Below, piece after piece: positions 21,660-22,448 of a stretch of DNA of 40,428 nucleotides. The stretch is taken from the NCBI GenBank assembly GCA_947502835.1, contig CANNBJ010000005.1:1-40428 (forward strand). The letters run 5' to 3'. Positions within the stretch are counted from its first letter, which is position 1. Every line of letters begins with the position of its first letter. The position numbers were made by a program, and so were the translations under genes. The stretch comes from Bdellovibrionales bacterium. GTDB lineage: Bacteria > Bdellovibrionota > UBA1018 > CAIMNF01. Below the pieces are notes generated by a model that saw only the letters and a list, made by a program, of their open reading frames with translations, made no database searches and was not told where the DNA came from.

Positions 21660-21676
21660 TTGGCATGAGGATTGCT
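21660..21676 (+). promoter_or_regulatory. Sigma-54-like (-24/-12) promoter
   Basis: TTGGCATGAGGATTGCT at 21660-21676 matches the sigma-54 consensus TGGCAYGrNNNTTGCW, with T instead of C at one position of the -24 box. GG and GC are correctly spaced. A start near 21687 would give the C-rich transcript below. No activator gene or enhancer site was identified. Confidence 0.5.
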
Positions 21677-21686
21677 ATTAAGAGCG

Positions 21687-21776
21687 GTAGAAGTAGTGCC
21701 GATCCCCAACCCCCTCACAAGGCACTCTTTTTAGGGCCCAGTCTCAACCCCCCTTGGACTGGGCCCACTTATTTTT
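21687..21776 (+). ncRNA. Candidate C-rich small RNA or leader
   Basis: A transcript from the sigma-54-like site would run about 90 bases to a strong terminator. It would carry CCCCAACCCCC (21704-21714) unpaired and CAACCCCCC again in the terminator loop. C-rich loops are the usual targeting regions of small RNAs that pair with Shine-Dalgarno G-runs. It may also be a leader ending before the histone gene at 21837. Not supported by homology; prediction from promoter, C-rich motifs and terminator only. The rest of 21523-21659 holds nothing I can assign. Confidence 0.4.
21734..21776 (+). terminator. Rho-independent terminator of the C-rich transcript
   Basis: GGGCCCAGTC (21734-21743) and GACTGGGCCC (21757-21766) form a perfect 10-bp stem with a C-rich loop, then ACTTATTTTTA. 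It stands about 60 bp before the histone gene. Confidence 0.85.
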
Positions 21777-21836
21777 ATCCCCCCATGACGAATAGCAGTT
21801 GAAAGATTCACTCTCATCCTTGAAAGTGAGCTACCT

Positions 21837-22385
21837 GTGGAGCAATCAAGCGTATGGAGACCGTGTTCCTCCTGTAAAAAGGCAATAGGCTTGAATTCGG
21901 TCTATTGGGCTTGTAATGTTTCAACCTGCAATCGGAAGCGGACCGGCCTCGTGTTCTGCTCAGTGGAGTGTTGGGATGCACATGTGCCCCTGTATAACCA
22001 CAGGGAGGCCTGGGCGGTTGAAACGAGGTCTCCCAAGACAAGGGAGGTTGAGTTGGCCCCCCCGGTTCGTCCGACAGTCACTGCACCAAGTGCGGGGCGC
22101 TCGGGGAAAAGTTTATCGGAACGTGAAAAATTCATTCTGGGTCTGGATGATCAGGCTGCAGAAGATGATGAAAGGGAAGAAGTCATGACAGAAGGTAATA
22201 CAGAAAAAGAAGTGTTGGTGGTTGCATCCAAGCTCAAGAACTACATCCGTGGCAAATCCGGAATGAACACGTCCGCTGCGGTGATCGATGTGCTCTCAGA
22301 CAAGGTTCGTGAGCTTTGTGACCAGGCGGTTGAAGCTGCAAAGCGTGATGGTCGCAAGACTGTTATGGATCGCGATTTCGGCTGA
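21837..22385 (+). CDS. Zinc-finger protein with a C-terminal bacterial histone fold
   Basis: 182 residues. N-terminal treble-clef/MYND-like finger: C10, C13, C26, C31, C41, C45, H49 and H55 are eight ligands in cross-brace order (CSSC, CNVSTC, FCSVEC, WDAH...H). A charged, Pro- and acid-rich linker runs 63-120. The end (123-182) is a histone fold: alpha-1 VLVVASKLKNYIRGK, alpha-2 NTSAAVIDVLSDKVRELCDQAVEAAKRDG, then RKTV, the loop-2 motif typical of archaeal and bacterial histones. Helix 3 is very short, as in the small Bdellovibrio histones. I recall a zinc-finger 'ZZ' histone class from surveys of prokaryotic histones; this would fit. It may bind DNA and help compact the chromosome. Start is GTG at 21837; the Shine-Dalgarno is weak (AGTGAG). 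Confidence 0.85.
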   Translation: MEQSSVWRPCSSCKKAIGLNSVYWACNVSTCNRKRTGLVFCSVECWDAHVPLYNHREAWAVETRSPKTREVELAPPVRPTVTAPSAGRSGKSLSEREKFILGLDDQAAEDDEREEVMTEGNTEKEVLVVASKLKNYIRGKSGMNTSAAVIDVLSDKVRELCDQAVEAAKRDGRKTVMDRDFG

Positions 22386-22412
22386 TCAGAGTTCAAGATT
22401 GAATTGTGCATG

Positions 22413-22448
22413 GGCGCTCCGGTTGTTTCCGGGGTGCCTTTGTTTTTT
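22413..22448 (+). terminator. Rho-independent terminator of the histone gene
   Basis: GGCGCTCCGG (22413-22422) pairs with CCGGGGTGCC (22429-22438) using two G:U pairs, followed by TTTGTTTTTT. Confidence 0.8.

What the first reader, a model, noticed from the sequence alone, without database searches (positions are those of the whole stretch)
21837..22385. Bacterial histone fused to a cross-brace zinc finger
The last 60 residues form a histone fold: a helix with VVASKLKNYIRGK, a long helix with NTSAAVIDVL...AAKRDG and the RKTV loop. The N-terminus has eight Cys/His ligands (C10, C13, C26, C31, C41, C45, H49, H55) in treble-clef order. Bacterial histones are rare, and most are single domains of about 60-70 residues. 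A zinc-finger-histone protein suggests a histone brought to a partner or DNA feature, or a chromatin-linked regulator. The gene lies within 4 kb of smc, another chromosome organiser. Basis: ligands and fold elements are read directly; the class assignment (ZZ-type prokaryotic histone, Bdellovibrio-like) is recalled family knowledge.
Basis: partly seen in the sequence, partly recalled or inferred. Interest (0 to 1): 0.85.

Follow-up and report, generated by a model that had tools for sequence, protein, structure and literature searches.

The report
Zinc-finger histone gene hiding second histone
The gene encodes a known but little-studied type of bacterial histone with a zinc finger attached, and comparison with its relatives suggests that the same gene also makes a plain histone from a second start signal inside it, so one gene may supply both forms of this DNA-packaging protein.

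Summary
Confirmed. The 182-aa ORF (21837-22385, +) is a ZZ histone: an N-terminal ZZ-type zinc finger with eight ligands, a disordered linker, and a C-terminal α3 histone fold matching Bdellovibrio HBb (E=3.5e-14). The ligand positions are those published for "ZZ histones" (PMC11390915), so the protein is a new member of a known kind. What looks new is the gene. Residue 117 is an ATG (22185) with a Shine-Dalgarno sequence, exactly where stand-alone histones of the same genus begin. In 12 genomes of the genus the histone locus is syntenic where it could be compared: eight carry the fusion, four only the plain histone, none both. A tree of neighbouring genes requires at least three changes, most simply one ZZ gain and two independent ZZ losses, each leaving a histone that starts at the former internal ATG with its SD. 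In divergent fused genes the linker is randomised (26% nt identity) but SD (71%) and ATG (81%) are kept. All 12 class members with an internal start lack a separate histone; six of eight without it have one. Outside the class only 2 of 40 ZZ histones have such a start. Best reading: one gene, two products. No expression data exist. A covarying C-rich RNA lies upstream.

The parts
21837..22385 (+). ZZ-histone gene, 182 aa, GTG start with weak SD, TGA stop
21855..22034 (+). ZZ-type zinc finger, residues 7-66; ligands C10 C13 C41 C45 and C26 C31 H49 H55
   Evidence: invariant ligands; AF2; structural neighbours include ZZ domains
22035..22184 (+). disordered, fast-changing linker (residues 67-116)
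   Evidence: low pLDDT over most of it; nt identity 0.26 at -60..-40 of the internal ATG
22171..22176 (+). Shine-Dalgarno-like AAAGGG of the internal start
   Evidence: duplex energy -5.5 kcal/mol
22185..22385 (+). proposed nested gene: 66-aa stand-alone HBb-like histone from internal ATG (M117)
   Evidence: position matches the start of stand-alone histones in sister genomes
22206..22379 (+). alpha3 histone fold, residues 124-181
21660..21676 (+). sigma54-like promoter TTGGCATGAGGATTGCT
   Evidence: conserved upstream of the RNA in fused and stand-alone genomes and at histone-independent copies of the RNA; sequence match only
21696..21778 (+). conserved RNA: two hairpins with C-rich loops, the second followed by a T run (terminator-like)
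   Evidence: fold z -5.2; covariation; genome search
21799..21827 (+). possible sigma70-type promoter TTGAAA-N17-GAAAGT, 9 nt before the GTG (would give a near-leaderless mRNA)
   Evidence: spacing conserved in most genus members; pattern is not specific in the genome; inference
22412..22439 (+). terminator-like hairpin after the gene

Best explanation
The ORF is a ZZ histone. Shown by sequence and predicted fold: an N-terminal ZZ zinc finger, a flexible linker and an HBb-type alpha3 histone fold. Inferred from comparison: the gene makes two in-frame products. The GTG at 21837 (weak SD) gives the 182-aa ZZ-histone, and the SD-led ATG at 22185 gives a 66-aa plain histone that takes the place of the separate HBb gene missing from this genome. 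The plain histone would be the bulk DNA-bending dimer. Full-length chains would dimerise through the same fold, so a minority of dimers carry one or two ZZ fingers and bring a peptide-binding module onto the chromosome. The partner of the ZZ finger is unknown.
For: Class: HBb match E=3.5e-14, Foldseek TMt 0.80-0.85 to HBb, ZZ domains among the neighbours of the finger model, ligand positions as published. Two products: internal ATG+SD in all 8 fused genes of the genus, at the position where stand-alone histones start; same syntenic locus with or without ZZ; independent gene tree requires at least 3 changes, most simply 1 gain and 2 losses, leaving SD+ATG as the start; linker at chance identity but SD 0.71 and ATG 0.81; internal SD stronger than GTG SD, mean -6.4 vs -2.5, p=0.02; 12/12 class genomes with internal start lack a separate histone, 6/8 without it have one, p=0.0007, or 0.028 with the genus and one two-genome genus collapsed; outside the class only 2/40 ZZ histones have such a start; only one clear histone-fold locus per genome in the genus.
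Against: No ribosome profiling, proteomics or reporter data. Synonymous-codon randomisation shows no excess SD strength (combined p=0.18): an E/K/R-rich linker makes SD-like DNA anyway. The window's SD is moderate (-5.5). G019 and five genomes outside the class have a ZZ histone, no other histone found and no internal ATG with a good SD, so a fused histone can suffice. Several genomes are incomplete MAGs. The ZZ could alternatively have been gained several times.
Confidence: 0.68

Rival explanations
1. Ordinary ZZ histone with a single product: the internal ATG and SD are leftovers of a ZZ + histone fusion and are not used.
For: Synonymous-codon test not significant; ZZ histones outside the class mostly lack an internal start, and some of those genomes have no other histone.
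Against: Genus members are so diverged that dS is saturated in many pairs and the linker is at chance identity, yet SD and ATG are kept, with GGAG present where the encoded residues changed. Two ZZ losses left intact histone genes starting there.
Confidence: 0.24
2. The plain histone is the only important product; the ZZ part is a degenerating add-on.
For: ZZ lost, most simply twice, in the genus with no other ZZ found; weak GTG starts.
Against: ZZ dN/dS 0.03-0.05 in the two pairs that could be measured and all ligands invariant.
Confidence: 0.06
3. Not a histone in function: a histone-fold protein with a non-chromatin role, as for TAF-like proteins.
For: Schwab et al. warn that histone-fold proteins need not organise genomes.
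Against: The histone half is HBb-like in sequence, including the RKTxxxD motif, and HBb bends DNA.
Confidence: 0.02

Closest known systems
ZZ histones (Schwab et al. 2024, PMC11390915)
   Same: N-terminal ZZ finger with C4 and C2H2 sites at the published positions, C-terminal bacterial-dimer-like alpha3 histone
   Different: Here an in-frame internal start sits before the histone fold, the histone half groups (weakly) with stand-alone HBb-type histones rather than with the internal-start-less ZZ histones of the class, and no separate histone was found in the genome; the passages of the paper that were read do not mention such a start
HBb / Bd0055, bacterial dimer histone (PMC10627809, PMC11317129)
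   Same: Residues 117-182 resemble a complete HBb: helix 1, RKTVMDRDF loop, truncated helix 3
   Different: Here it is the C-terminal part of a larger ORF, expressed alone only if the internal start works
Bd3044, second histone of B. bacteriovorus (PMC10627809); presumed to be its ZZ histone
   Same: Longer, less abundant histone, probably of the same architecture
   Different: B. bacteriovorus also has a separate HBb gene; the Bd3044 sequence was not examined here
6C RNA (RF01066), for the upstream RNA
   Same: Two adjacent hairpins with C-rich loops
   Different: Score 21.2 against a gathering score of 47; sigma54-like promoter; found in Bdellovibrionota, whereas 6C is known from actinobacteria (recalled)

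Membership tests
ZZ histones (PMC11390915) | N-terminal ZZ finger, C4 site plus C2H2 site at 10/13/41/(43 as printed) and 26/31/49/55 | tested here: met
   All eight ligands present and invariant in 29 domains. The last C4 ligand is C45 here with V43 invariant; the printed C43 is probably a misprint, not checked on D0LYE7
ZZ histones (PMC11390915) | ZZ fold like HERC2, p300, ZZZ3 | tested here: inconclusive
   VIA-align neighbours include ZZ domains of p62, HERC2 and BIG, the p300 core and a SAGA HAT-module chain, but Z is only 3.6-5.1; top row is an RSC chain, Z 5.5, rmsd 1.6 over 49 residues; ribosomal zinc proteins score 3-4
ZZ histones (PMC11390915) | C-terminal bacterial-dimer-like histone | tested here: met
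   HBb E=3.5e-14, TMt 0.80-0.85
alpha3 histones | Truncated alpha3 of 3-4 residues and RKTxxxD motif | tested here: met
   Helix 178-181; RKTVMDRD in the sequence
alpha3 histones | Dimerisation and DNA binding | not testable with these tools
   No multimer prediction or assay available
FtF (face-to-face) histones | Torus tetramer via conserved R48/N52 | not tested
   Closest by sequence to HBb, not to HLp
6C RNA RF01066 (upstream RNA) | Gathering score of the family model | tested here: not met
   21.2 bits vs 47, E=3.3

The most novel reading that the evidence does not exclude
A nested histone gene: one ORF, read from two in-frame starts, yields a ZZ-finger histone and a plain HBb-type histone whose ratio is set by the two start sites, so that finger-bearing and plain histone dimers are made in linked amounts; ZZ finger and histone also occur as separate proteins in other members of the order.
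Probability: 0.68. Interest if true: 0.7.

Novelty: new variant of a known kind. Interest (0 to 1): 0.58.

Why it matters
ZZ histones are a published family whose finger has no known role. If the same locus makes both forms from a nested start, histone variants in bacteria can be produced without a second gene, and the finger-bearing form is best seen as a tagged minority subunit of ordinary histone dimers. The natural presence and absence of ZZ at one locus within a genus, and the split of ZZ and histone into separate genes elsewhere in the order, make the function of the finger testable by comparison and by simple two-start reporters.

Tried and rejected
Synonymous-codon randomisation of the SD gave no support (combined p=0.18). 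The rule 'no separate histone means internal start' fails outside the class. Met enrichment in class-A linkers is circular, because that class is defined by the Met, and is not used. Profile search of the ZZ alignment against PDB sequences found nothing credible; Pfam gives only weak zinc-finger hits. No relatives in viral contigs. Neighbouring genes of other ZZ loci, read by eye only, show no shared context. The TTGAAA-N17-GAnnCT promoter pattern is unspecific, 43 hits vs 15 control in the genome.

Full report
Observation. The ORF 21837-22385 on the + strand is open, 182 codons, with a GTG start. The eight Cys/His ligands sit at residues 10, 13, 26, 31, 41, 45, 49 and 55 and are invariant across 29 aligned ZZ domains. 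Residues 124-181 match the solved histone HBb of Bdellovibrio bacteriovorus with E=3.5e-14 and the Leptospira histone HLp with E=2.7e-7. Pfam and NCBIfam see the histone only below their curated cut-offs. AlphaFold2 predicts the finger with high confidence (block means 84-96), a linker below pLDDT 50 over much of 79-117, and helices at 119-141, 147-170 and 178-181, the last being the truncated helix of alpha3 histones. Foldseek places the histone half on HBb with TMt 0.80-0.85, and VIA-align agrees (Z 6.3-6.5). The finger modelled alone has ZZ-domain chains among its nearest neighbours, but at modest Z, with ribosomal zinc proteins close behind.

Class. Schwab et al. 2024 define ZZ histones with exactly this architecture and give HMM positions C10, C13, C41, C43 and C26, C31, H49, H55. 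The window protein matches, apart from C45 in place of the printed C43. The protein is therefore a new member of a published family. Hocher et al. report that B. bacteriovorus has HBb (Bd0055), which could not be deleted, and the longer, less abundant Bd3044.

The internal start. Codon 117 is ATG (22185-22187), preceded by GAAAGGGAAG. In the 12 genomes of the genus, eight have the fused gene and four (G001, G006, G007, G009) have only a stand-alone histone; none has both. A Pfam histone search finds one locus per genome at E below 0.1, apart from one 14.9-bit hit in G008. The stand-alone proteins begin at the position of M117 and carry similar SD sequences, near-identical between G002 and G009 and between G004 and G007. 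The locus is the same in fused and stand-alone genomes: nucleotidase, GGDEF protein, histone, PMT-like protein, glycosyltransferase, SMC, as far as each contig reaches; a stand-alone histone also lies between GGDEF and PMT-like genes in the sister genus G012. A tree of five neighbouring proteins pairs fused G004 with stand-alone G007 (100/100) and fused G003 with stand-alone G001, G006 and G009 (98/98), which requires at least three changes; with ZZ forming one clade in the genus (99/92), one gain and two losses is the simplest history.

Selection. Among six divergent fused genes the nucleotides at -60 to -40 of the internal ATG are 26% identical, i.e. chance, those at -20 to -12 are 71% and the first 12 of the short ORF 81%. 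GGAG is present in G004 and G005 although the encoded residues differ. The upstream start is GTG in all eight, with weaker SD on average (mean -2.45 vs -6.41 kcal/mol); G008 is an exception. However, randomising codons at fixed protein sequence gives SDs as strong often enough that the SD is not significant by that test.

Wider comparison. In the class, 12 ZZ-histone genes have an internal ATG with SD and none of these genomes has a separate histone; of eight genes without it, six are in genomes with one (p=0.0007; 0.028 with the genus and one two-genome genus collapsed). Three of the 12 genomes are only 71-76% complete. Outside the class, 2 of 40 ZZ histones have such a start, and five genomes have neither that start nor another histone. 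Among more distant genomes found, several with a single histone have the start (L010-L012, L021) and several do not. ZZ domains of the class's internal-start-less genes form one clade (98/93), while internal-start genes group with ZZ-only proteins in the ZZ tree (89/81) and with stand-alone histones in the histone tree (80/83, weak). ZZ-only proteins occur in genomes of the order that have a separate histone. So finger and histone are found fused, nested or separate.

Upstream RNA. Between the MarC gene and the ORF lies a conserved RNA of about 80 nt (21696-21778): two hairpins with C-rich loops, the second followed by a T run. Fold z-score of the region is -5.2. On 15 sequences 96% of cells pair and the covariation score is 0.543 against 0.216 in shuffles and at most 0.126 in slid controls; the alignment was fitted to the model, which favours the structure. 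A sigma54-like TGGCA-N7-TTGC motif precedes it, also at copies on other contigs in G051 and G035 and at a distant locus in G029, not next to the histone. It is therefore probably an independent sRNA that sits before the histone gene in this genus. It resembles 6C RNA but does not reach that family's threshold.

Mechanism. Shown: architecture, conservation, synteny and distribution. Inferred: use of M117, the plain histone as main product, mixed dimers through the shared fold, and recruitment of a partner by the finger. I put 0.68 on the two-product reading and about 0.97 on the ZZ-histone identity.

Noticed in passing
window 21660-21778; L157, L160, L162: Covarying two-hairpin RNA with C-rich loops and a sigma54-like promoter, next to the histone gene in the genus but at independent loci in other genera; below the Rfam 6C threshold.
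   Followed up: partly
L053, L056, L057, L061, L062, L064: ZZ-only proteins without histone fold, ending in a conserved ILRR-type tail, in genomes that have a separate HBb-like histone.
   Followed up: partly
L167-L206 linkers: Many ZZ histones outside the class carry an RRIIV-like motif in the linker; most genus members instead share a SERxKFIxGL-like motif.
   Followed up: no
G156:C7:63494-63868 and G146:C48:98722-99096: Two consecutive histone-fold matches, each pair apparently within one open frame, suggesting histone doublets in Bdellovibrionota.
   Followed up: no
L086 (G021): Fused gene has a TAA inside the histone fold; assembly error or broken gene.
   Followed up: no
L028, L012: MAG titles (Nitrosovibrio, Klebsiella) do not seem to fit the content; L028 has the genus's own synteny.
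   Followed up: partly
window 21799-21836: TTGAAA-N17-GAnnnT spacing ending 8-9 nt before the GTG in several fused genes; a near-leaderless mRNA is possible.
   Followed up: partly
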